A stretch of DNA of 64,000 bases. Source: a virus. A program made the position numbers and the translations under genes. Shown here in pieces: positions 5,412-22,002 of this stretch. The notes below the pieces were generated by a model. That model did not search any database. It was not told where the DNA came from and was given only the letters and a program-made list of their open reading frames with translations. Each line of letters begins with the position of its first letter. The stretch's first letter is position 1. The DNA lies in IMG/VR virus record IMGVR_UViG_3300022538_000472, positions 1 to 64,000 of that record. One strand, given 5' to 3'.

Positions 5412-6008
5412 ATGGAAAAGTATAAAGTGAAGTTGACGTTTACAGAGCCAATACTGGGGACAATTCCCAAAGACCCAGAGATATACGCTGGGTACATCGC
5501 CACCAAGGCTGCCTTGACAGATGAGCAGGTTGCTGAGGAGTTGGCAACGGTGGAGAAAGTGGAGGAGAAAGGCTGGACAGGCTTTCACATGCTGGACGGT
5601 AAGCCAGTGCTCTATGACTATGTGCTCAAAGGCTTCTTTAAGGGCGCTTGTGGTGCACTGAGGCGCGTCAGTGATACCAGATCGTACAAAATCAAGGCGT
5701 ACAAGAAGATCATCGACGGCCTGGTATTCATCACGCCCCGACGCATCCCGCTGATATTGCCAGAAGGTGAGGAACTAGGTGTGCTAGAGCGTCCGTTGCG
5801 GGCGCAAACAGCGCAAGGCGAGCGCGTGACACTGGCCCGTTCTGACACCTGCCCAGTGGGAACTACGCTGGAGTTCACTGTGACGATCTTGGGGCAGGTG
5901 AGCGAAGCACTGCTGAGAGAATGGCTGGACTATGGAGCACTGCTGGGATTGGGTCAATGGCGCTCAGCAGGTTGGGGCCGTTTCGAGTACACGATGGAAA
6001 AAGCATAG
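5412..6008 (+). CDS. Conserved phage protein, RAMP-like C-terminus
   Basis: A 198-residue protein with an AAAAGGAG ribosome site. It begins KVKLTFTEPILGTIPKDPEIY, a start I recognise from a conserved but uncharacterised phage protein family. The C-terminus LLGLGQWRSAGWGRFE resembles the glycine-rich loop of RAMP (Cas5/Cas7-like) folds, which bind RNA. No CRISPR array or cas gene is present in the window, so a CRISPR role is not supported. It is followed directly by the degenerate repeat tract at 6009, which may be linked to it. Confidence 0.6.
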   Translation: MEKYKVKLTFTEPILGTIPKDPEIYAGYIATKAALTDEQVAEELATVEKVEEKGWTGFHMLDGKPVLYDYVLKGFFKGACGALRRVSDTRSYKIKAYKKIIDGLVFITPRRIPLILPEGEELGVLERPLRAQTAQGERVTLARSDTCPVGTTLEFTVTILGQVSEALLREWLDYGALLGLGQWRSAGWGRFEYTMEKA

Positions 6009-6505
6009 CAATGGCACCGCGGGGCAATACTGGGCCCTGCCGCGCGGAGCAATAGCATGATGTCCTGCCTTGCATAGATAAGCACAGCAACAGCGCGGCG
6101 GCGGCACAGCAATGTGGAGCGGTATGGGGCGATGTGAGGCGACAAATAGCACAGCAACAGTTTGGCCCCGCGTGGCGATGCGAGGCAACAGCAATGCAGA
6201 GTCATGCACGGTGCCGCAAAGTAGGGCAACAGCGTTGCCAACCGGTGCGGAGCGCGGACATGACCAGCAATAGTATCGCGTAGCATGGTAATGCCGTGCG
6301 CAGCAGTAGATGGGCAGAGCCATGAGACGCAAGGCATAGCGACAGCACGGGTGGGCGGTGCAAAACAGCACGCAGCAATAGGCAAAGTATAGCTGGGCTA
6401 CGCACTGCAAAGCAAAGGAATTGCATAGCCACCCAATGTTTCGCTCAGCAACAGCGTGGCAGCGCAGTGCCCAACGCGGCCAACCGTAGCATAGCAAAGA
6501 AAAGG
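6009..6505 (+). repeat. Degenerate pentamer-periodic tract, non-coding
   Basis: About 500 bases without a credible gene. The sequence is made of short purine-rich units around GCAAC, GCATA, GCGGC, GCGAT and GGCAA, spaced at about five bases with drift, for example repeated gcacagcaacagc and ggcatagcgacagc. No unit is copied exactly for long, so this is not a simple microsatellite. Apparent long reading frames on the minus strand are an artefact of the repetition. It ends at a ribosome site for the next mini-gene. Function unknown; it follows the RAMP-like gene directly. Confidence 0.6.
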
Positions 6506-6513
6506 AGAGATAG

Positions 6514-6624
6514 ATGAGCAAGAAACAAATCAACATCGTCGCTGTACTGTTCTGCATAGACCTAGGGTTTGCACTTGGGTGGCTCGTAGTCGTCGCAGCG
6601 CAGGTACTCCTGCCTGCTAGATGA
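6514..6624 (+). CDS. Mini membrane protein, 36 aa
   Basis: AAAAGGAGAG lies just upstream of the ATG. The product has a basic start (MSKKQ) and a single long hydrophobic helix ending LLPAR. It closes the block before the GIY-YIG cassette. Confidence 0.5.
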   Translation: MSKKQINIVAVLFCIDLGFALGWLVVVAAQVLLPAR

Positions 6625-6632
6625 CCAGATGC

Positions 6633-6661
6633 TTGACAAAAGGCCCCAACCATGCTACAAT
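6633..6661 (+). promoter_or_regulatory. Sigma70 promoter of GIY-YIG cassette
   Basis: TTGACA at 6633-6638, a 17-base spacer and TACAAT at 6656-6661, with TG one base before the -10 (extended -10). This is close to consensus. The predicted transcript starts around 6668, within the first arm of the structured leader. Confidence 0.8.
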
Positions 6662-6663
6662 AT

Positions 6664-6807
6664 AGGTGTCAAGCCAACTCAGTAGGATGTTTTGTCTTAG
6701 GCCAGAACGTCTTAGTCGCAGATAAAGCACCCTCTGTCATAGGAGCGTTAAGCATCCTATCGGTTGGCTTGACACCTGGCCGAAACTATGATGGAGGGTG
6801 TTTTGTC
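6664..6807 (+). ncRNA. Pseudoknotted leader RNA, copy A
   Basis: Helix S1 pairs 6664-6678 with 6763-6777 (15 perfect base pairs), extended inside by 6683-6689 with 6753-6759. Helix S2 pairs 6728-6742 with 6786-6800 (15 pairs counting GU). The 5' arm of S2 lies in the S1 loop and its 3' arm lies outside, so the two interlock as a pseudoknot. GGCC at 6700-6703 can also pair with 6778-6781. The 3' arm of S2 contains GGAGGG (6793-6798), the ribosome site of the endonuclease, and is followed by TTTT. It looks like a leader that hides its ribosome site or ends transcription. Confidence 0.65.
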
Positions 6808-7791
6808 ATGCAAGAACGCATCTCAGGAATCTATATCATTGAGAACATCAGAGACGGAAAGATGTACATCGGATCAAGCAGCCACATTCCCCAGCGTATA
6901 TCGTCTCACAAAAGAAGCCTGCGCAGGGGAGACCACCAAAATAATCATCTCCAACGCGCATGGAATAAATATGGGAAGGAATCCTTTCGATTCAAGATAG
7001 TTGAGAGATGTCCAGTCGAAAAACTGATTGAGCAAGAACAATCTTGGCTAGACGCAGGAAATGGGAACCTCTATAACATAGCCATTGCTGCGGATGCACC
7101 GATGCGGGGACGCAAAATGCCAGAGGAAGGCAGAACAAGAATAAGTGAAGCCTTAACAGGCCACAAGCGGACTGAGAGAGAATGTCAGTTGATTAGAGAA
7201 CACGCTTCCAGAAACTATCCTGCTTTCATTCACAAATCAGGTGAAATAACTCCAGAAGGATGGAATCTTGAGAGGCTATGTAAAAGAAAAGGCTTGCATA
7301 CAGGCTCAATGTGGGATGTGGTACATGGTCATAATCATAAGACTCACAAAGGCTGGATGCTTTTCAAACAGGCAGTTAAGCAACCAGACGGAACTTGGGG
7401 AATCAAAAGAAAGATCCGTGCAGGTTCTTCCTATCCCTCATTCATTCATGTCTCAGGAGAAATTATCCCAGCAGGCAGCGACCTAGCCCAATTATGCCGC
7501 AAGATGAATCTAAGTCGGCCCCACATGATCTCAGTGAAAACCGGAAATCGCCCCCTCTGTCAAGGATGGATGCTGAAAAGCCAGGCAAAGCAATCAGCGG
7601 ATGGGACTTGGTTTGTAGAGCATGGCCTTGCTGGTCCCTACCCTAGTTTTGTCCACAAGGACGAAAGGATAATACCGGCAGGTATCAATATCTCCAGAAT
7701 GTGCCGTAAATATAACCTTAGTGTCGCACACATAATGCAGGTTGCAGGAGGAGAAAAGAAATCACACATGGGGTGGAGGTTGCTAGAATGA
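6808..7791 (+). CDS. GIY-YIG homing endonuclease
   Basis: The start at ATG 6808 gives an immediate GIY-YIG domain: GIYIIENIRDGKMYIGSS, then RISSHKRSLRRG, NNHLQRAWNKYGKESF and a conserved E in EQEQSWLDA. A NUMOD3-like segment (GRKMPEEGRTRISEALTGHK) follows. The C-terminal 190 residues hold three copies of a module of about 55 residues beginning YP(A/S)F(I/V)H and ending GW(M/R)L, probable DNA-reading units. It is a free-standing homing endonuclease with its own promoter and structured leader. It ends as ATGA with the next gene. Confidence 0.88.
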   Translation: MQERISGIYIIENIRDGKMYIGSSSHIPQRISSHKRSLRRGDHQNNHLQRAWNKYGKESFRFKIVERCPVEKLIEQEQSWLDAGNGNLYNIAIAADAPMRGRKMPEEGRTRISEALTGHKRTERECQLIREHASRNYPAFIHKSGEITPEGWNLERLCKRKGLHTGSMWDVVHGHNHKTHKGWMLFKQAVKQPDGTWGIKRKIRAGSSYPSFIHVSGEIIPAGSDLAQLCRKMNLSRPHMISVKTGNRPLCQGWMLKSQAKQSADGTWFVEHGLAGPYPSFVHKDERIIPAGINISRMCRKYNLSVAHIMQVAGGEKKSHMGWRLLE

Positions 7792-9221: not shown

Positions 9222-9464
9222 ATGAGAGATATGGTAGAAAGACGCTACAAGGCAGATTGGACAAATACTGCCAATCGTAGACGGTACCGACAGGGCAGGC
9301 AGCGTATGCTGAGGAGGGGCTACCAGGCCATAAGTGCGGTGACTCATAGGCAACCACAGGACAGCTATCTGCGAACCATCCTTCGAATCATAACGTTTGG
9401 CCTCTTCACGCTGCTATGGCCGCCGAAGCCGGTGCTGGTGGTCACGTATAGGATGAGGGCTTGA
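9222..9464 (+). CDS. Small basic protein with C-terminal membrane helix
   Basis: The start at ATG 9222 is preferred because AAGGAGAC lies just upstream. The first 50 residues are very basic (RRRYRQGRQRMLRRG). A hydrophobic segment (ILRIITFGLFTLLW) follows. The TGA stop lies within the -35 hexamer of the next promoter, so its end may have been set by the insertion of that element. Confidence 0.55.
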   Translation: MRDMVERRYKADWTNTANRRRYRQGRQRMLRRGYQAISAVTHRQPQDSYLRTILRIITFGLFTLLWPPKPVLVVTYRMRA

Positions 9465-9488
9465 CTATTGAGTAAAGGATGGTATAAT
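9461..9488 (+). promoter_or_regulatory. Sigma70 promoter of primase leader
   Basis: TTGACT at 9461-9466, a 16-base spacer and a perfect TATAAT at 9483-9488 preceded by TGG (extended -10). It overlaps the end of the upstream gene and drives copy B of the structured leader. Confidence 0.8.
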
Positions 9489-9500
9489 GGCTTTGAATAC

Positions 9501-9671
9501 AAAACGGCCTTGGCAGGGCCAACGGTGGTAACAAAAGGAAGCACTGCTTATCGGTGCTTCTGGTCTAGCCCATGCCATCGGGATTCTGCCAGAAGAAGAC
9601 CAGGAGTACCGATAAGGAGTGCTTTTTTGTGTCTACATCAAAGCTACAGCGTCTTCAATGAGGCACCAACT
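9501..9671 (+). ncRNA. Pseudoknotted leader RNA, copy B
   Basis: S2 pairs 9539-9566 with 9597-9624: 28 positions with one mismatch and two GU pairs, followed by six T (9623-9628), an intrinsic-terminator shape. S1 pairs 9511-9519 with 9568-9577 (one bulge); its 3' arm lies in the S2 loop, giving the same pseudoknot order as copy A. AAGGAG at 9614-9619 lies in the S2 3' arm. It serves a GTG at 9629 that opens 10 codons (MSTSKLQRLQ), whose stop overlaps ATG 9658 (MRHQL), whose stop overlaps the primase ATG. This chain may couple translation into the primase. Confidence 0.65.
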
Positions 9672-11906
9672 ATGACAGAATTGCTTGATGCTGCTCTCTC
9701 CTATGCTCGTCGCGGATGGGCAGTGCTACCTGTACATACTCCTACTAAAGATGGTGGCTGTTCCTGTGGTAAGTCTACTTGCGATAGCCAGGGGAAACAT
9801 CCTAGAATAACAGAATGGCAAAAGCAGGCAACTACTGACGAAGCAACAATCCACAAGTGGTGGAAGCAATGGCCCAATGCCAATATCGGTATCAATCCTC
9901 GTAGTTCTAATCTCATTGTCATAGACATTGATCCTCGCAATGGCGGCGACGAAACTTGGCACAAACTCAAACAGCAGCACGGGTTAAACGACAATACCGT
10001 AATCAGTTTGACTGGCGGTGGTGGTATTCATCTATTGTACTCTGCCGATGGAATTGACCCAACGGGACTGAAGGTATCTTTGGGGCCAGGGGTTGACGTA
10101 CAACGGGGAGATAAACTCATTGTTGCTCCTCCCTCATTGCACAAAAGCAAGCATCGGTATGAGTGGGAGGTCTTAGGCCACCCCGATGATATGGAACCTC
10201 TTCGACTACATCCATCTCTCCTGAACCTACTCCTAAAGCCCAAGGGGCAGAAGCAAACAACAAAGCCTGTTGGAAGAGAAATACCAGAGGGAGATCGTGA
10301 TAATGAACTTGCTAGGCTTGCAGGGGGCATGCGCCGGAATGGGATGACTGAATCTGAACTACTGGTGGCATTATCGGAAGTCAACAAAAGATGCATCCCA
10401 CCTCTACCAGACAGTGATGTGAGACGAATTGCCCACAGCATAGCACGATATGACCCCGCTGAAAGCGCTGCGAGCGCCGATTCCAACTGTCCAGTACTAC
10501 CAGAATGTGCACATCTCACTCTGGCACAAGAGGCAGAGAGCCAAGAGGTTGGACACTGGCTCGACGAATATGTACAGTTTGCATCAGAAGCAAGTCCGAT
10601 GACTCCAGTATCTTTTCACATGGCGGCTGGGGTGTACGCTGGTGCATTGGCAATTGCCCGTCGCTTACATTTGTGCGTAAGTACTCGTATGAATACTATC
10701 TATCCTAATTTGTATTTGCTGTTTGTAGGACATTCAACCCGTCCCCGGAAGACAACCGCCCTGCGTGTACTACGTGGCGTTTTGCGCGAGGCTGACATGC
10801 GGCGATTCTTATTGGCCGACAGACAGACACCAGAGGCATTATCCTTGGACTTAACCACTGGAATACCTAGAACCCTCGACGAATGGACTCCAGAAATACA
10901 GTCCGAGTGGCTAGAGGAACGAGGCATCGCAGGTCAACGAGGATGGCTCCTAGAGGAAGCATCACACTTACTGGACAGTTTCAATCGAGACTACAGCAAG
11001 GGACTACTTCCACTTGTGCTTGACCTTTACGACTCCAGCGACATTGGCCCAACAGGTAACACTATCTCACGGGGACGTGAGGGGATAATGAAGCCTTACC
11101 TGACTGTCTTTGGGTGCACAACTTATGGCGCATTAGCAGAACATGCAGAGAAAACAGTGCACTGGCACAATGGTTTGTGGGCACGCTTCGCATTGATAGG
11201 AAGTGATGATACAGGGATATGGAAGTTCTGGCCACCCTCAATGAATTATCCTCCTGCTCTAATAAAACGCCTGCGGTTCCTTGCCTATGATCTCCTACCT
11301 ATGCCACAAGCGACAATTGAGACCAGCGAAGTGACAGACAACGATGGAGATTCGCGCACCTTGCGCGAAGTGATAGTTGATCCACCTTTAGTTAGTTCAG
11401 AAGTAGTCATCAGAAGAGCCGCCTGGGAGCAATGGGAGCAGTACTCGAAGGCTGTCGGATTCGATATGCTACCAGAAAAGAGTGGCGAGGTGTCAACTAG
11501 GCTCTATGCAAGTTATGGTCGTTTTGGCACAACACTAATCAAAGTCGCTATGATTCTGGCGGCTCTTGATGCCGACCGACTGCCAGTGACAGTAGAAGCA
11601 GCCCACACATATCGCGCCCAGGCCATTGTCGAGGGATGGCGTGCCAATCTTCACACTGTCCTAAGCAAGATGACCACAGTTAGCGCAGATGGAGTGGCCG
11701 AACATATTGTGGCAGTATTGGCACAAAAGGGGCGTGAGTGGACGATGAGGCGTGACCTGCTGCACGCAATTAGCAAGAGATGGTCAGATACAGAATCCAT
11801 CATAGATGACCTGGAGGCAGGAGGGGAAATAGAACGTAAAGAAAAGAAAGGTAAGCGAGGCCCTTCTACTGAGGAGTATAGATTGTGGGTGGAAGAATCA
11901 AAGTAA
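9672..11906 (+). CDS. Bifunctional primase-polymerase with helicase-like C-terminus
   Basis: ATG 9672 gives MTELLDAALSYARRGWAVLP, the classic prim-pol N-terminus. CSCG and C-containing segments (zinc site), GKHPRI, IGINPRSSNLIVIDIDPRNGG with the catalytic DxD, and GGGGIHLLY follow. A PriCT-1 segment lies near residues 210-260 (RDNELARLAGGMRRNGMTESEL). The C-terminal half resembles the DUF3987/YfjI helicase-like ATPases, with a poor Walker A (GHSTRPRKTT) and LLEEASHLLDSFNRDY. It should start phage DNA replication. Longer frames from 9468 run through the leader RNA and are not used. Confidence 0.85.
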   Translation: MTELLDAALSYARRGWAVLPVHTPTKDGGCSCGKSTCDSQGKHPRITEWQKQATTDEATIHKWWKQWPNANIGINPRSSNLIVIDIDPRNGGDETWHKLKQQHGLNDNTVISLTGGGGIHLLYSADGIDPTGLKVSLGPGVDVQRGDKLIVAPPSLHKSKHRYEWEVLGHPDDMEPLRLHPSLLNLLLKPKGQKQTTKPVGREIPEGDRDNELARLAGGMRRNGMTESELLVALSEVNKRCIPPLPDSDVRRIAHSIARYDPAESAASADSNCPVLPECAHLTLAQEAESQEVGHWLDEYVQFASEASPMTPVSFHMAAGVYAGALAIARRLHLCVSTRMNTIYPNLYLLFVGHSTRPRKTTALRVLRGVLREADMRRFLLADRQTPEALSLDLTTGIPRTLDEWTPEIQSEWLEERGIAGQRGWLLEEASHLLDSFNRDYSKGLLPLVLDLYDSSDIGPTGNTISRGREGIMKPYLTVFGCTTYGALAEHAEKTVHWHNGLWARFALIGSDDTGIWKFWPPSMNYPPALIKRLRFLAYDLLPMPQATIETSEVTDNDGDSRTLREVIVDPPLVSSEVVIRRAAWEQWEQYSKAVGFDMLPEKSGEVSTRLYASYGRFGTTLIKVAMILAALDADRLPVTVEAAHTYRAQAIVEGWRANLHTVLSKMTTVSADGVAEHIVAVLAQKGREWTMRRDLLHAISKRWSDTESIIDDLEAGGEIERKEKKGKRGPSTEEYRLWVEESK

Positions 11907-13657: not shown

Positions 13658-14133
13658 CGGTGGACAGAATGAGTAACCTATTCGGCGATATAATCCGCAC
13701 ATACCGTGAACAACACGACCTGACACAACGACAGATAGCCGAGAGATTGCGATTGTCGCGTAATTACGTATCACAGATCGAACGCGGCCTGGCGGATAAT
13801 CTGTCGTTTGAGGTGGCATTGCGTATCTTGGGCCTGCCAGGAAAACCCCACGGCCAGATTTGGGTCACGTTGACGCGCCGCGTGATGGTAGACACCATGA
13901 TTGCTTCTGAGGTCGTGTGGCTGAACTCACAAGGCATTGTCACAGAAGGCTGTTGCGCCGGGCCACCGCCGACGGCGATGATCCTTCCGAGTAGTGTCAC
14001 GGCGGCCAGGCGATTGGGTTATGAACCCAAATATCTTGGACTTGGTTTATATGAGATAACGCTCAAATCTGAGGTGAAAGGAAATAGCGACAGAGGCAGA
14101 CTGGTTAAAGAATTGGCGGCGCTAGATGGGTGA
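13654..14133 (+). CDS. XRE-family regulator with C-terminal Cys domain
   Basis: Residues 10-62 form an XRE helix-turn-helix (IIRTYREQHDLTQRQIAERL, SRNYVSQIERG). The C-terminal part has VVWLNSQGIVTEGCCAGPPP and AARRLGY, similar to a small Cys-containing domain seen in other phage proteins. It may repress phage promoters; the palindromic operators at 12182 are possible targets. The start is an ATGA overlap with the previous gene. Confidence 0.75.
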   Translation: MTVDRMSNLFGDIIRTYREQHDLTQRQIAERLRLSRNYVSQIERGLADNLSFEVALRILGLPGKPHGQIWVTLTRRVMVDTMIASEVVWLNSQGIVTEGCCAGPPPTAMILPSSVTAARRLGYEPKYLGLGLYEITLKSEVKGNSDRGRLVKELAALDG

Positions 14134-16612
14134 AGTTTTAATAGACGCCTGGACGGGATGCTACCGCGAGGGGTGGGGCCGGAATCGATTACGGCCAGCA
14201 TCGTTTGCCCATCCTGCTAAAAACAGTTATGGCCTGTCCGTGCGCATCTACGAGCACGCGCTGGAGGAAGGGTGGATTGAGCCGGGGCAAACTTTGATTG
14301 ACATCTTTGCCGGAGTCGGCGGCTTCGCGCTAGAGGCAATGCGTCACGGCTTGCACTTCGTTGGCATAGAATTAGAGCAGCGTTTTGTCGATATGGGCCA
14401 GGGCTGCGACTGCACCGGCATCAACAAGGCGGACTGGGTGAGGTTCCAAGGTCGGTGGGACAAGATGCGCTATGAGGGCGGGCGCCACTGGTGTCCGCAG
14501 TGCCTGGCACGGGCGGGCGCAGTGACGGGTGAACGGGAATTCAAGCCGCTTCCGCTGCCGGGCACAGAGTGGGCCACTGTCGTCAGGACGCGCCAGGCGT
14601 CATCGTTCGACGCCGTGCCGTCGGCGTCCTACGTGCGCAACAGCGGCGAGATACCGTGCACTGGTGTGCATCACTACCGAGGGAACATAGAGACGTGGGA
14701 GCGGCAGGGCATGGCGGGCAGCGCGGTCATCGTGCAGGGCGACTCGCGGCGGCTGGGCGAGGTGCTGGCGCGGGCTAGTCTCTGCCTATCCAGTCCACCT
14801 TACGGCGGCAACGTTAAATCGGATAGGACGCATGAGCGGCGCGACAAGCGGCGACTGGGTGTTGATTTCACAGGCCGTGGGCGCGGCTGTTTTCGTGGTA
14901 GTGAGTGCTACGGCCAAACCGAAGGCAATCTCGGCAACCTGCCCGACACCGGCTTCGAGGCGGCGTTGGCAATGCCCAGCGTCATTGGTTTCAAAATTAG
15001 ACAGGTTGCAAATCACTACTCTAGAGCACAGGCAGCATGTGAGGCGTGGTTATCCGGCTCTCTGTGGGGAAATCCCATCATCTTTTCGCCTGGCAATATT
15101 CATGTCTATGGTGTGTGGATGCGTGATTGGTCACAATGCTTTGTTCAATTTATGGACAAGAGAATAGTTATTGTAAAGCCAGTCGTCAATTATACTGGTA
15201 GACAGGCGGTGCTGGCTATCTCCTCGCCTCCGTTCCGAGGCGTTGTGCTACACGATGGCGGCCCTGTCCAGCAACAAGGCGGTGAGTTGCACAGCGATTA
15301 TGGCTCCGAACCTGGTCAACTGGCGCAGATGCCAGAGGGCGAGCTGACAGAGGTTGTCAAGTATGGCGTTGGGCAGTATGGCGAGCGATGGCAGGATGTA
15401 CTCGCCGCCCTGCCCGAAGGCGACCATGCGGAGGCTTGCGAGCGGCCTGTTTGCGCGATTTCCTCGCCTCCGTGGCAAGGCGCAGATCAGCGCGGATGTC
15501 CAGAGAGTAAATGGCAGTTGATGCAAGCAGCAGCCCGCGATGGCAAGGGGCATTCATCTACTCACCTGCCACCATCTATGGGCATAGACTACGGCAATGA
15601 AGAAGGGCAACTCGGCGCGATGCCCCCCGGCGACCACGCGGCGGCGCTGGAAGCGGAGGAACCTAAACTTGTAACCCTGGGAAATTATGGTATAATGTCC
15701 AGTAAAATGGAGGTTATACAATGCCAAACTATTGCGAAGATTGCGGAAAATCAATATCGAGACGTGCCAGATGTTGCAAGCCATGTAGCAAAAAACATGT
15801 CAGCGAAACACTCAAAGGACGTAAAAAGCCAGAGGGATTTGGAGCCAAAATTGCGGCAGCCAGATTCAACACCCCAATGCCTAATTGCTGGGGAGAAACC
15901 CATCCTCATTGGAAAGGCGGAAGTGTTCGCTGGCGAGGATACGCTTGGCAAGTCAAGCGCCGTGCAGCCCTTAAGCGAGATGGGCACAAATGTATCAAGT
16001 GCGGTTCCACAAATTATCTCCAGGTTCACCACAAAAAAGGCAGATCAGAGACAGATGGAACCTGGGACAACGAACTTGACAACCTCGAAACCCTGTGTGC
16101 TACCTGTCACCTTGCCCTGCACCGCCCCTCCGACTTTAAGGCCACTTGCCCAGTATGTGGAAAAGAACACCGAGCAGGATCATGGAACGCTTGTTGCTCA
16201 GAAGAATGCAGAAGGAAATCTAAGTTGCGTGCCAAGCGGAAATTCGACGCAAAAGCAAAAAGAGACTCTCAGCACATTTTGGGCCGCCAGCAGGCAGCTA
16301 CTGGAGCAGGTCTACCAGGTGCTCGCGCCGGGAGGTCACGCGATTTTCGTCTGCAAACGATTTGTACGCAATAAGGAGATAGTTGACTTCCCGCTACAAT
16401 GGGCGCGTCTCTGTGAGGCCGTCGGGTTCACCTGGATTCACCACCATAAGGCGTGGCTGGTGGAGGACAGGGGGGCGCAGCATACGCTGGAGGGGGGACT
16501 GGAAAAACGAGTGGTCAAGAGGCTTTCCTTCTTCCGCCGCTTGCACTCGCAGAAGTATCCGCATCTAGAGATACTTTACGAGGATGTACTCTGTTTTGTC
16601 AAGGAGGCATGA
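14126..16612 (+). CDS. DNA methyltransferase carrying an endonuclease insertion
   Basis: Motif I is LIDIFAGVGGFALEAMRHGL near residue 53, and a catalytic motif SSPPYGG near 221. Two further SSPP-type motifs (SSPPFRG, SSPPWQG) lie near 370 and 448, as in some multi-motif phage N4/N6 methylases. The C-terminal Rossmann part includes VLAPGGHAIFVCKRF. Between about residues 515 and 720 the frame is open but its sequence is low in family character: this is where the HNH gene at 15721 lies in another frame. Whether the read-through protein is active is unknown. It should methylate DNA, protecting it from host restriction. Confidence 0.75.
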   Translation: MGEVLIDAWTGCYREGWGRNRLRPASFAHPAKNSYGLSVRIYEHALEEGWIEPGQTLIDIFAGVGGFALEAMRHGLHFVGIELEQRFVDMGQGCDCTGINKADWVRFQGRWDKMRYEGGRHWCPQCLARAGAVTGEREFKPLPLPGTEWATVVRTRQASSFDAVPSASYVRNSGEIPCTGVHHYRGNIETWERQGMAGSAVIVQGDSRRLGEVLARASLCLSSPPYGGNVKSDRTHERRDKRRLGVDFTGRGRGCFRGSECYGQTEGNLGNLPDTGFEAALAMPSVIGFKIRQVANHYSRAQAACEAWLSGSLWGNPIIFSPGNIHVYGVWMRDWSQCFVQFMDKRIVIVKPVVNYTGRQAVLAISSPPFRGVVLHDGGPVQQQGGELHSDYGSEPGQLAQMPEGELTEVVKYGVGQYGERWQDVLAALPEGDHAEACERPVCAISSPPWQGADQRGCPESKWQLMQAAARDGKGHSSTHLPPSMGIDYGNEEGQLGAMPPGDHAAALEAEEPKLVTLGNYGIMSSKMEVIQCQTIAKIAENQYRDVPDVASHVAKNMSAKHSKDVKSQRDLEPKLRQPDSTPQCLIAGEKPILIGKAEVFAGEDTLGKSSAVQPLSEMGTNVSSAVPQIISRFTTKKADQRQMEPGTTNLTTSKPCVLPVTLPCTAPPTLRPLAQYVEKNTEQDHGTLVAQKNAEGNLSCVPSGNSTQKQKETLSTFWAASRQLLEQVYQVLAPGGHAIFVCKRFVRNKEIVDFPLQWARLCEAVGFTWIHHHKAWLVEDRGAQHTLEGGLEKRVVKRLSFFRRLHSQKYPHLEILYEDVLCFVKEA
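15669..15696 (+). promoter_or_regulatory. Promoter of the nested HNH gene
   Basis: TTGTAA at 15669-15674, a 16-base spacer and TATAAT at 15691-15696 preceded by TGG (extended -10). ATGGAGG at 15707-15713 serves as the ribosome site. A promoter inside a methyltransferase reading frame supports independent expression of the endonuclease. Confidence 0.65.
15721..16374 (+). CDS. HNH homing endonuclease nested in the methyltransferase
   Basis: N-terminal Cys pairs (YCEDCGKSI, CCKPCSKKH), the NPHWKGG-like HPHWKGGS, and the HNH core RDGHKCIKCGSTNYLQVHHKK ... NLETLCATCHLALH. Another zinc knuckle (CPVCGKEH, CCSEECRR) follows. It is read in a different frame from the surrounding methyltransferase, with its own promoter and ribosome site. 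The last 30 residues are probably read from methyltransferase sequence. Confidence 0.85.
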   Translation: MPNYCEDCGKSISRRARCCKPCSKKHVSETLKGRKKPEGFGAKIAAARFNTPMPNCWGETHPHWKGGSVRWRGYAWQVKRRAALKRDGHKCIKCGSTNYLQVHHKKGRSETDGTWDNELDNLETLCATCHLALHRPSDFKATCPVCGKEHRAGSWNACCSEECRRKSKLRAKRKFDAKAKRDSQHILGRQQAATGAGLPGARAGRSRDFRLQTICTQ

Positions 16613-18341: not shown

Positions 18342-18461
18342 ATGACACAAGTAAAAATTGCAGAAGCACCCTGCTTGACTACAAGCCAATCCCATGGTAT
18401 CATGTCAGTTGCCTATGGCCCACCACAATCGGCTGGCGGCAGATTGGAGACTCCCTTTTGA
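18342..18461 (+). pseudogene. Helicase gene start cut by LAGLIDADG cassette
   Basis: The frame MTQVKIAEAPC repeats the start at 17953, then passes directly into the -35 hexamer at 18375 and the leader RNA, ending at TGA 18459-18461. The rest of the helicase resumes at 19148 after the endonuclease. This looks like the displaced first exon or 5' end of the helicase gene. Confidence 0.45.
18375..18403 (+). promoter_or_regulatory. Sigma70 promoter of LAGLIDADG cassette
   Basis: TTGACT at 18375-18380, a 17-base spacer and TATCAT at 18398-18403 preceded by TGG. The -35 begins exactly where similarity to the 17953 copy ends, so it marks the left edge of the cassette. Confidence 0.75.
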
Positions 18462-18531
18462 CGTAGTCTCCACGCCTGAGCCCGGCGGCTCGATTGTGGA
18501 GGCTGTGGAGATTACGTCAAAGGGGAGTTTT
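18423..18531 (+). ncRNA. Pseudoknotted leader RNA, copy C
   Basis: S1 pairs 18423-18431 with 18491-18499 (9 perfect). S2 pairs 18450-18477 with 18500-18528 (28 pairs including two GU, one bulge). The S1 3' arm lies in the S2 loop, the same interlocked order as copies A and B. AGGGGAG at 18521-18527, the ribosome site of the endonuclease, is inside the S2 3' arm and TTTT follows. A small hairpin GAGCC/GGCTC also fits in the loop. Confidence 0.65.
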
Positions 18532-19161
18532 GTGTTCCAGAAACGACTGGGATTTGATTTTCAGATAAACGACGATCTTGGACATTGGCTTGCTGGTTTT
18601 GTGGATGGTGAGGGAGCATTCATGATTCATCCTGTGATTAGGAAACGAGGCTATATTAGAAAGGATGGTAGCAGTCAAGAGTCCCATGAATGCGATGTAA
18701 AATTTCAGATCAAATTGCGCGTCGATGATATTCAAATCCTACAAGAGATTAAGAAACATCTAGCATGCGGCAAAGTCATAGTCTGTCAGAGAAGTAAATC
18801 AAAAGGTGGATTTGAGAACACGAAGCCTGTTGCCATATATCTTGTAACTGTTTACTCTGATCTCTATAACATCATAGTACCCCTGTTTGAGAAATATCCC
18901 CTGCGAGCAAAGAAAGCACAAGATTTTGAAATCTGGAAGGATGCCGTTGCAATTGCCTACCAAGCCAAACTTTCTTCTCGTTCCATGAAACTTAGACAAC
19001 GTGCATTATCTGATTCACAGTGGTCATCTTTTGTTGAGATTGCAGAAAGACTACGCAAGACTCGTGAGTTTGATGAATCACATTTAGAATCTTATCTTGA
19101 AACAGTACCTAAGTCCCAATGGGATCCCAGTTTAAGAGAGAGATACAATGATACCAAGTGA
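18532..19161 (+). CDS. LAGLIDADG homing endonuclease
   Basis: The GTG at 18532 after the leader is chosen; the frame is open further up but only through the leader. LGHWLAGFVDGEGAFMI is a clear LAGLIDADG helix with the catalytic D. FQIKLRVDDIQILQEIKKHL, VIVCQRSKSKG and YPLRAKKAQDFEIWKDAV are conserved beta-sheet and second-motif features of single-motif enzymes, which act as dimers. It overlaps the helicase start by 14 bases. Confidence 0.85.
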   Translation: MFQKRLGFDFQINDDLGHWLAGFVDGEGAFMIHPVIRKRGYIRKDGSSQESHECDVKFQIKLRVDDIQILQEIKKHLACGKVIVCQRSKSKGGFENTKPVAIYLVTVYSDLYNIIVPLFEKYPLRAKKAQDFEIWKDAVAIAYQAKLSSRSMKLRQRALSDSQWSSFVEIAERLRKTREFDESHLESYLETVPKSQWDPSLRERYNDTK

Positions 19162-21101: not shown

Positions 21102-21148
21102 TGAGTAATTGGCAGATCGAGTGCAAGGATGTGATGAAAAGTTATTAA
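21101..21148 (+). pseudogene. N-terminal remnant of a DNA methylase
   Basis: TAATG overlap with the preceding gene, then 15 codons MSNWQIECKDVMKSY. This resembles the start of N4/N6 DNA methylases (xIxCGDxLxxL). It stops at the edge of the convergent HNH cassette. A likely C-terminal remnant lies at 22003. Identification rests on few residues. Confidence 0.35.
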
Positions 21149-21846
21149 CATGATGCTACTATTTGAGACAATTTAAGTTCCCAGTAATTTCTATGATAAT
21201 TGGTTTTTCCATGGCAAGTGGTACAGAGAGTTATACAATTGTTTTCTACTGTGTGCTCTTTAATATAATCAATATGATGTACTTGGTTACCAAATTCACC
21301 ACACAGTGCACAAGTATAACCATCCCGTGTACGTATTTTCTCTTTAAAAGCGTTGTTAAAAGTCTCAGGATAAGGCTCAAAGGAAGTGCCACCATTCCAG
21401 GCTGGGTTTCTCTCACCTTGATGAGCAATGCCTCTACACTGGAGAGAACAATACTTCCCATATCCCTTTTCAAGAGCTTCTCGACTAATATGTCTTCTAA
21501 ATTCGCGCCCACAAATTTGGCATATCCACTTTGGTGGCCCCCCTTTCCATCGAGGATTGTTTATTCCACAAATATAATGCGAATGATACTTATCAGCACA
21601 TTCACGGGAACAAAACTGACATACTAGACGGATTTCTCGACCCAGTAGACGCCCGCAAAACTTACAGTTCCTTTTTGGTCTTGATTGCCAGTGAGGATTG
21701 CCCTTACCTTTAAAAAGCCTAGAACGGCGTTGCTTGTAGCATTTTTTTGAACAACACTTGTTGGGACTTTTTCTCAACTCAGAAGGATAAACATAAAACA
21801 GTTTTTGGCATTCGGGGCATTGTGTTAGTATCATCACTAATTTCAT
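21145..21846 (-). CDS. HNH homing endonuclease with zinc knuckles
   Basis: The start is taken at ATG 21846 (MKLVMILTQCPECQKLF); a longer frame reads into the leader. Four zinc-finger-like units (CPECQK, CKFCGR, CQFCSREC, CQICGREF) and two N-P-W-K/N-GG linkers (NNPRWKGGP, NPAWNGG) precede the HNH core RDGYTCALCGEFGNQVHHID ... NNCITLCTTCHGKTN. It is opposite to the surrounding early genes, with its own promoter and structured leader at 21856-22002. Confidence 0.88.
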   Translation of the reverse strand: MKLVMILTQCPECQKLFYVYPSELRKSPNKCCSKKCYKQRRSRLFKGKGNPHWQSRPKRNCKFCGRLLGREIRLVCQFCSRECADKYHSHYICGINNPRWKGGPPKWICQICGREFRRHISREALEKGYGKYCSLQCRGIAHQGERNPAWNGGTSFEPYPETFNNAFKEKIRTRDGYTCALCGEFGNQVHHIDYIKEHTVENNCITLCTTCHGKTNYHRNYWELKLSQIVASC

Positions 21847-21855
21847 CCTGGGAAA

Positions 21856-21966
21856 CAGGAGACCCCTAAACCCATGGCGGCTTCTGCTTAGGGAGCCAAC
21901 GGAGGGCATAGGGGTCATGGGAACGAAAAAATCCGCCTGTATCCGGTTACGTTATGCTCCCTAAGC
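21856..21966 (-). ncRNA. Pseudoknotted leader RNA, copy D
   Basis: Read on the minus strand. S1 pairs 21966-21956 with 21896-21886 (GCTTAGGGAGC with GCTCCCTAAGC, 11 perfect). S2 pairs 21916-21909 with 21868-21861 (GACCCCTA with TAGGGGTC). A GGCGG/CCGCC helix (21937-21933 with 21880-21876) is also possible. The S1 3' arm falls in the S2 loop, the same order as copies A-C, but S2 is shorter and the T-tract is poor. Confidence 0.5.
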
Positions 21967-21973
21967 GCCCTAC

Positions 21974-22002
21974 ATTTTATCACAGAGACTTAGAATTGTC
22001 AA
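21974..22002 (-). promoter_or_regulatory. Sigma70 promoter of minus-strand HNH cassette
   Basis: On the minus strand TTGACA (22002-21997), 17-base spacer, TAAAAT (21979-21974) with TGA before it (extended -10). The -35 directly abuts the ATG of the plus-strand frame at 22003, marking the cassette edge. Confidence 0.75.

What the first reader, a model, noticed from the sequence alone, without database searches (positions are those of the whole stretch)
6633..6808. Pseudoknotted, SD-occluding leader RNA with its own promoter (copy A)
A near-consensus promoter starts a roughly 140-nt leader in which S1 (15 perfect pairs) and S2 (15 pairs) interlock. The S2 3' arm holds GGAGGG, the ribosome site of the GIY-YIG gene, and TTTT follows. 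The same order (S1 5', S2 5', S1 3', S2 3' with SD, T-tract) recurs at 9.5, 18.4 and 21.9 kb with unrelated primary sequence. I know no described RNA family with this recurrence before homing endonucleases.
Basis: seen in the sequence. Interest (0 to 1): 0.85.

Follow-up and report, generated by a model that had tools for sequence, protein, structure and literature searches.

The report
Interlocked leader RNAs after phage promoters
A virus that probably infects Chloroflexota bacteria starts at least six of its transcripts with a similarly built RNA of 109-145 bases whose two long stems thread through each other; some of these cover the start signal of selfish DNA-cutting genes, and the type is not in the RNA family catalogue.

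Summary
At 6633-6808 an extended -10 promoter (TTGACA-17-TACAAT) starts a ~140-nt leader with two interlocked helices: S1 (17 bp plus an inner 10-11 bp) and S2 (22 bp). S2's 3' arm holds GGAGGG, then TTTT, then the ATG of a GIY-YIG gene. None of 1000 shuffles comes near it. Copies B and C (9.5, 18.4 kb) are equally clear; D (21.9 kb) is weaker. Scanning the rest of the 109.6-kb virus record found two more: E (67.2 kb) and F (94.0 kb). F aligns with A, with both-sided pair changes. A covariance model from A+F picked out E as its best forward-strand match beyond its training pair (marginal E 0.34).

The class is not tied to homing endonucleases: B precedes a primase, E an unknown gene, F small ORFs. 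In E and F the ribosome site lies outside S2. All six share promoter and interlocked S1/S2; in A, D, E, F S1 starts at predicted +1. RBS-hiding RNA before phage homing endonucleases is already known in T4. No Rfam family matches, and no relative was found beyond a 99.9% identical contig. Best reading: cis-acting leaders controlling independently transcribed phage genes. Mechanism is inferred, not shown.

The parts
6633..6661 (+). Copy A promoter TTGACA-17-TACAAT, extended -10 (TG)
6663..6679 (+). Copy A S1a 5' arm; predicted +1 is about 6668, inside this arm
6682..6692 (+). Copy A S1b 5' arm (inner continuation of S1)
6721..6742 (+). Copy A S2 5' arm
6750..6760 (+). Copy A S1b 3' arm
6762..6778 (+). 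Copy A S1a 3' arm, inside the loop of S2
6786..6807 (+). Copy A S2 3' arm with GGAGGG (6793-6798) and TTTT (6801-6804)
6808..7791 (+). GIY-YIG homing endonuclease gene
   Evidence: Pfam GIY-YIG 1.1e-12; phrog_314 homing endonuclease 6.8e-27
9461..9488 (+). Copy B promoter TTGACT-16-TATAAT, extended -10
9510..9592 (+). Copy B S1: 9510-9517/9585-9592 and 9523-9530/9573-9580
9535..9628 (+). Copy B S2: 9535-9545/9618-9628 and 9547-9566/9597-9616; AAGGAG 9614-9619; T6 9623-9628
9672..11906 (+). Prim-Pol / PriCT_1 / DUF3987 primase gene (likely start; not a homing endonuclease)
   Evidence: Pfam Prim-Pol 5.6e-37
18375..18403 (+). Copy C promoter TTGACT-17-TATCAT, extended -10
18423..18499 (+). Copy C S1: 18423-18432/18490-18499
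18447..18531 (+). Copy C S2: 18447-18474/18504-18531 (28 contiguous pairs); GGGGAG 18522-18527, TTTT 18528-18531
18532..19161 (+). LAGLIDADG endonuclease gene, GTG start
   Evidence: Pfam LAGLIDADG_1 2.9e-17
21974..22002 (-). Copy D promoter TTGACA-17-TAAAAT
21861..21966 (-). Copy D S1 21966-21956/21896-21886 and S2 21916-21909/21868-21861
21145..21846 (-). HNH endonuclease gene
   Evidence: phrog_1271 HNH 4.9e-20

Best explanation
A is one of at least six promoter-coupled leader RNAs of a phage whose terminase points to Chloroflexota hosts. Each transcript begins with S1, whose 5' strand starts at about +1 in four of the six, and folds into an H-type pseudoknot with unusually long helices: S1 about 10-28 bp, S2 about 8-30 bp, in the order S1 5', S2 5', S1 3', S2 3'. 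They act in cis on genes with their own promoters. In A and C the S2 3' arm contains the Shine-Dalgarno sequence, so the folded leader holds the endonuclease off. Because S1 can form before the S2 3' arm is made, I infer that the fresh transcript is briefly open and then locks, limiting endonuclease output to a short window. Supported here: helices, topology, recurrence, promoter coupling, A-F homology, probable E homology. Inferred: that both helices coexist in vivo, the repression, the time window, and how E and F, whose SD lies outside S2, are controlled (probably by the same fold acting on transcript stability or ribosome loading).
For: All six beat 1000/1000 shuffles on summed helix energy; the weaker helix beats 1000/1000 in A, E, F. 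5 of 19 strong promoters have the motif against 0.5% of random positions. S1 starts within about a base of predicted +1 in A, D, E, F. MAFFT alignment of A and F, made without structure, shows five both-sided pair changes; cells paired 86% vs 34-47% when partners are slid. The A+F model's best forward-strand match outside its training pair in 733 kb is E, aligned end to end, promoter included. In A a 3'-truncated transcript folds S1 with the SD region open; adding the S2 3' arm switches the nested optimum to S2. RBS sequestration of phage homing endonucleases is established in T4-like phages.
Against: No expression, probing or reporter data. No homologue outside this virus, so covariation rests on paralogues A, F and E. 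E's model score is marginal (21 bits, E 0.34 over 733 kb). SD occlusion does not hold for E and F and is unclear for B and D. With nested-only energies in A, S1-containing and S2-containing folds are close (-56.0 vs -60.8), so a two-state switch is possible. Pseudoknots of the strength of D, E and F occur elsewhere in the genome and in related contigs without promoters.
Confidence: 0.45

Rival explanations
1. Transcription attenuator. S2 is an intrinsic terminator (G-rich 3' arm, then U tract, A-tract before the 5' arm in A, B, F); capture of its loop by the RNA 5' end (S1) decides between stopping, giving a ~130-145-nt RNA, and reading through into the gene.
For: T4-T6 directly after the G-rich arm in A, B, C, F; S2 is a very strong hairpin in B and C; in F the first sizeable ORF starts about 155 bases further on.
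Against: E and D lack a proper U tract; S2 loops are about 30-50 nt, long for a terminator; in A and C the U tract sits inside the SD-start spacer; the terminator scan does not list A, B or C (its loop limit of 8 would exclude them anyway).
Confidence: 0.22
2. 5'-end armour. S1 pairs the first transcribed bases and the pseudoknot blocks 5'-dependent decay, so the leader stabilises mRNAs of isolated genes; SD overlap in A and C is incidental.
For: S1 starts within about a base of predicted +1 in A, D, E, F; the fold is kept although the position of the SD varies.
Against: B and C have about 12-20 unpaired 5' bases; a stabiliser needs no interlocked S2; nothing measured.
Confidence: 0.15
3. Processive antitermination or RNA-polymerase-modifying leader, working like HK022 put RNA, that lets transcription from these promoters pass later terminators.
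For: Position directly at +1 of several strong promoters; independent of the downstream gene type; the fold is kept more than the sequence.
Against: put sites are short hairpin pairs (own knowledge); D and E head short units; many other strong promoters lack the element.
Confidence: 0.08
4. Long inverted repeats generated by mutation or mobile-element insertion, with no RNA function; the interlocking is chance.
For: Interlocked helices of moderate strength also occur away from promoters in this and related genomes.
Against: Same order and similar spacing six times, coupled to promoters, shuffles, both-sided changes between A and F.
Confidence: 0.07

Closest known systems
RBS-sequestering RNA structures of T4-family homing endonucleases (I-TevI, II, III, segB, Aeh1 mobE)
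   Same: Phage homing endonuclease genes with the ribosome site buried in a stable leader structure and, for the T4 intron endonucleases and segB, a nearby promoter (PMC2988022, PMC3014915).
   Different: There a simple hairpin forms only on transcripts from upstream promoters and the near promoter escapes it (shown for I-TevI); here the gene's own promoter includes the whole structure, which is an interlocked pseudoknot, and the class also heads non-endonuclease genes.
T4 gene 32 mRNA 5' pseudoknot
   Same: Pseudoknot at the 5' end of a phage mRNA used in translational control (PMC3014915).
   Different: Small coaxial pseudoknot 67 nt upstream of the start codon, bound by gp32; here long helices overlap the ribosome site in A and C, and no protein partner is known.
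E. coli rpsO (S15) translational operator pseudoknot
   Same: Leader pseudoknot acting as a translational operator (PMC3014915; further detail own knowledge).
   Different: Single host gene with a protein ligand; far shorter helices (own knowledge).
Phage HK022 put RNAs (own knowledge)
   Same: Structured RNA right at +1 of phage promoters.
   Different: Hairpins, not pseudoknots; antitermination; not tested here.

Membership tests
T4-type RBS-sequestering homing endonuclease leader | Ribosome site base-paired in a stable RNA structure | tested here: met
   A: GGAGGG inside S2; C: GGGGAG inside S2; sequence and folding energy only
T4-type RBS-sequestering homing endonuclease leader | Structure excluded from transcripts of the gene's own near promoter | tested here: not met
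   Predicted +1 of A lies at the start of S1, so own-promoter transcripts carry the full structure
T4-type RBS-sequestering homing endonuclease leader | Downstream gene is a homing endonuclease | tested here: inconclusive
   Yes for A, C, D; no for B, E, F
Any Rfam 15 family | Covariance-model score at or above the gathering threshold | tested here: not met
   permissive search of 6600-6900 gave only chance matches
Intrinsic terminator / attenuator | GC-rich hairpin followed at once by a U tract | tested here: inconclusive
   U tract in A, B, C, F; not in D, E; terminator scan lists none of A, B, C, whose loops exceed its limit
Gene 32-type autoregulatory pseudoknot | Bound by the gene product it controls | not testable with these tools
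   No binding data
HK022 put-like antitermination RNA | Suppresses downstream terminators through RNA polymerase | not testable with these tools
   Needs transcription assays

The most novel reading that the evidence does not exclude
A new class of phage leader RNA: a long-helix interlocked pseudoknot starting at or near +1, fused to its own promoter and copied within one genome as a portable expression-control cassette in front of unrelated genes, keeping the fold while the sequence diverges and placing the ribosome site inside or outside S2 according to the gene.
Probability: 0.4. Interest if true: 0.75.

Novelty: new variant of a known kind. Interest (0 to 1): 0.55.

Why it matters
Phages must restrain homing endonucleases and other independently transcribed genes. 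A portable promoter-plus-pseudoknot leader kept in at least six places in one virus would be a reusable RNA control module, found so far in no catalogued family and in a phage group with almost no molecular biology. It is directly testable in E. coli, because the promoters look like ordinary sigma-70 sites.

Tried and rejected
Homologues of the GIY-YIG, primase, LAGLIDADG and E proteins in IMG/VR: none; capsid: none. Terminase relatives: 80 viral loci plus longer stretches of their contigs, scanned with the same promoter+pseudoknot search; apart from the 99.9% identical contig carrying F, only weak or unconvincing hits, mostly near shuffled background; the leads in L014 and L031 did not hold up on inspection. 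blastn of A in phages: only promoter-sized chance matches. A/F S1 pattern in IMG/VR: only the identical contig is real. A/E promoter pattern: 7 hits, none with the pseudoknot. Model R1 and patterns in Chloroflexota genomes: nothing, but no positive control there. Considered and dropped: group I intron or other ribozyme (no Rfam hit, helix lengths wrong), HEARO/IscB RNA (no such gene seen), bridge RNA of IS110 (an IS110-like gene lies after the E gene, but none was seen next to A-D), tRNA. A three-sequence MAFFT alignment with E was not used for pair counts because it does not follow the helices. Literature searches for a described class of this kind found none, within an open-access library only.

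Full report
What is there. The window is bases 1-64000 of a 109,607-base virus record. At 6633-6661 lies TTGACA-17-TACAAT with TG before the -10. The predicted transcript starts near 6668 and runs about 140 bases to the ATG at 6808 of a GIY-YIG endonuclease. In it, 6663-6679 pairs with 6762-6778 (17 contiguous pairs with G-U), continued inside by 6682-6692/6750-6760, and 6721-6742 pairs with 6786-6807 (22 contiguous pairs with G-U). The two helices interlock. GGAGGG at 6793-6798 is within the second helix, as is TTTT at 6801-6804.

Is it chance? In 1000 dinucleotide shuffles of the 160 bases after the -10, the best interlocked pair averaged -24 kcal/mol (stacking sum) and never passed -39.4; copy A has -69.1. 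The weaker of the two helices is -33.8 against a shuffled best of -16.8.

How many copies? The same scan over the rest of the record finds, besides B (9.5 kb), C (18.4 kb) and D (21.9 kb, minus strand), also E (67,176-67,298) and F (94,020-94,141). All beat 1000/1000 shuffles for the sum; the weaker helix gives 0/1000 in A, E, F and 14, 3 and 2/1000 in B, C, D. D is the least certain: its summed energy (-42.0) is close to interlocked pairs found elsewhere in the genome without a promoter. Of 19 non-redundant promoters scoring 11 or more, five carry the motif (four below -42, and D at -42.0), while 31 of 6000 random positions do. F's promoter is weaker (score 9). In A, D, E and F the S1 strand begins within about a base of the predicted +1. 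Many other strong promoters lack it, including that of the HNH gene at 15721.

Homology and covariation. A and F align over their whole length, promoter included. In that structure-blind alignment five pairs change on both sides and 86% of cells pair, against 34-47% when the partners are slid; 13 of 500 shuffles reach five both-sided changes, so with two sequences this is moderate evidence. A covariance model from A and F with S1 pairs only, searched over 733 kb, returned its training pair, their reverse strands (self-complementarity) and, as the only other match, E at 21 bits (E 0.34), aligned end to end from the -35 box to the Shine-Dalgarno sequence. A and F are therefore homologues and E probably is. 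C shares GGGGAGTTTTG with F; B and D share only the architecture.

What the class is not. It is not specific to homing endonucleases: B precedes a Prim-Pol primase, E a gene with no significant family match, and F a group of small ORFs, the first sizeable one about 155 bases beyond S2. SD occlusion is clear in A and C; B has AAGGAG in S2 but probably uses an ATG with GAGG further on; D is unclear; in E the SD (GGGAGG) lies after S2; in F only a five-codon ORF follows S2 closely. The U tract at or after the end of S2 is present in A, B, C, F only. No Rfam family matches.

Where else? IMG/VR holds no close relative of the GIY-YIG, primase, LAGLIDADG or E proteins. Terminase relatives (80 viral loci, and four loci in bacterial genomes, two at 54% in Chloroflexota MAGs) suggest Chloroflexota hosts. 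Scans of about 1.4 Mb of these contigs gave only weak or unconvincing hits, apart from a contig 99.9% identical to this virus that carries F. The model found nothing in 301 genomes of the Chloroflexota MAG's phylum, though without a positive control. The class is therefore known only from this virus.

How it may work. In A, a transcript truncated before the S2 3' arm folds S1 plus local stems and leaves the region before the start codon open; once that arm is present the nested optimum changes to S2. S1-containing and S2-containing nested folds are close in energy (-56.0 and -60.8), while the listed parts of both helices together sum to -63.4 before any pseudoknot cost and without other stems, so coexistence is plausible but not proven. 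The two helices use different strands, so they are not alternatives by sequence, and every copy interlocks them in the same order, mostly with short connectors, which argues for a pseudoknot. For A and C I infer translation that is open briefly and then locked. The T4 literature supplies the precedent for hiding the ribosome site of phage homing endonucleases (PMC2988022, PMC3014915), but for I-TevI the near promoter escapes the structure, whereas here it includes all of it. Attenuation at the U tracts and 5'-end protection remain live rivals; the latter in particular fits E and F better.

Verdict. Observation confirmed and extended from four to six copies; interpretation partly supported; a new variant of a known kind of phage leader control, with a modest chance of being a distinct class.

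Noticed in passing
genome 74144 downward, minus strand (L002, about 10900-11145): Promoter TTGACA-17-TATACT followed by a tRNA-like RNA (stack GGTCTGGCAGG/CCTGTCAGACC, arm GACGGGTTCAACTCCCGTC, a second TTCAACT arm) and a CCGGGAGC..GCTCCCGG terminator with T run; ARAGORN and Rfam call nothing.
   Followed up: partly
window 15669-16374 inside 14126-16612, + strand: HNH endonuclease with its own extended -10 promoter lies in a second frame inside a methyltransferase ORF that stays open through it: about 650 dual-coding bases.
   Followed up: no
genome 88592 and 88424, minus strand (L003): Two near-consensus promoters 168 bases apart, each followed by a structured leader without obvious ORF; possible small RNAs.
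   Followed up: no
L003 12900-13200 (genome 94900-95200): Long-range inverted repeat TCTTTGACAGATAGATGA/TCATCTATCTGTCAAAGA about 250 bases apart in an ORF-poor stretch downstream of copy F; possible large structured RNA.
   Followed up: no
L002 5554-6519 (genome 68554-69519): IS110/IS116-like transposase (phrog_4285 5e-32; Pfam match weak) downstream of the copy E gene.
   Followed up: no
window 6000-6480: Degenerate low-complexity stretch of GCA/CAGCAACAGC-like units just upstream of copy A.
   Followed up: no
L002 15810-19949, minus strand: Large ORF that looks like a portal gene with a LAGLIDADG-type intein-like insertion, judged by eye from the translation.
   Followed up: no
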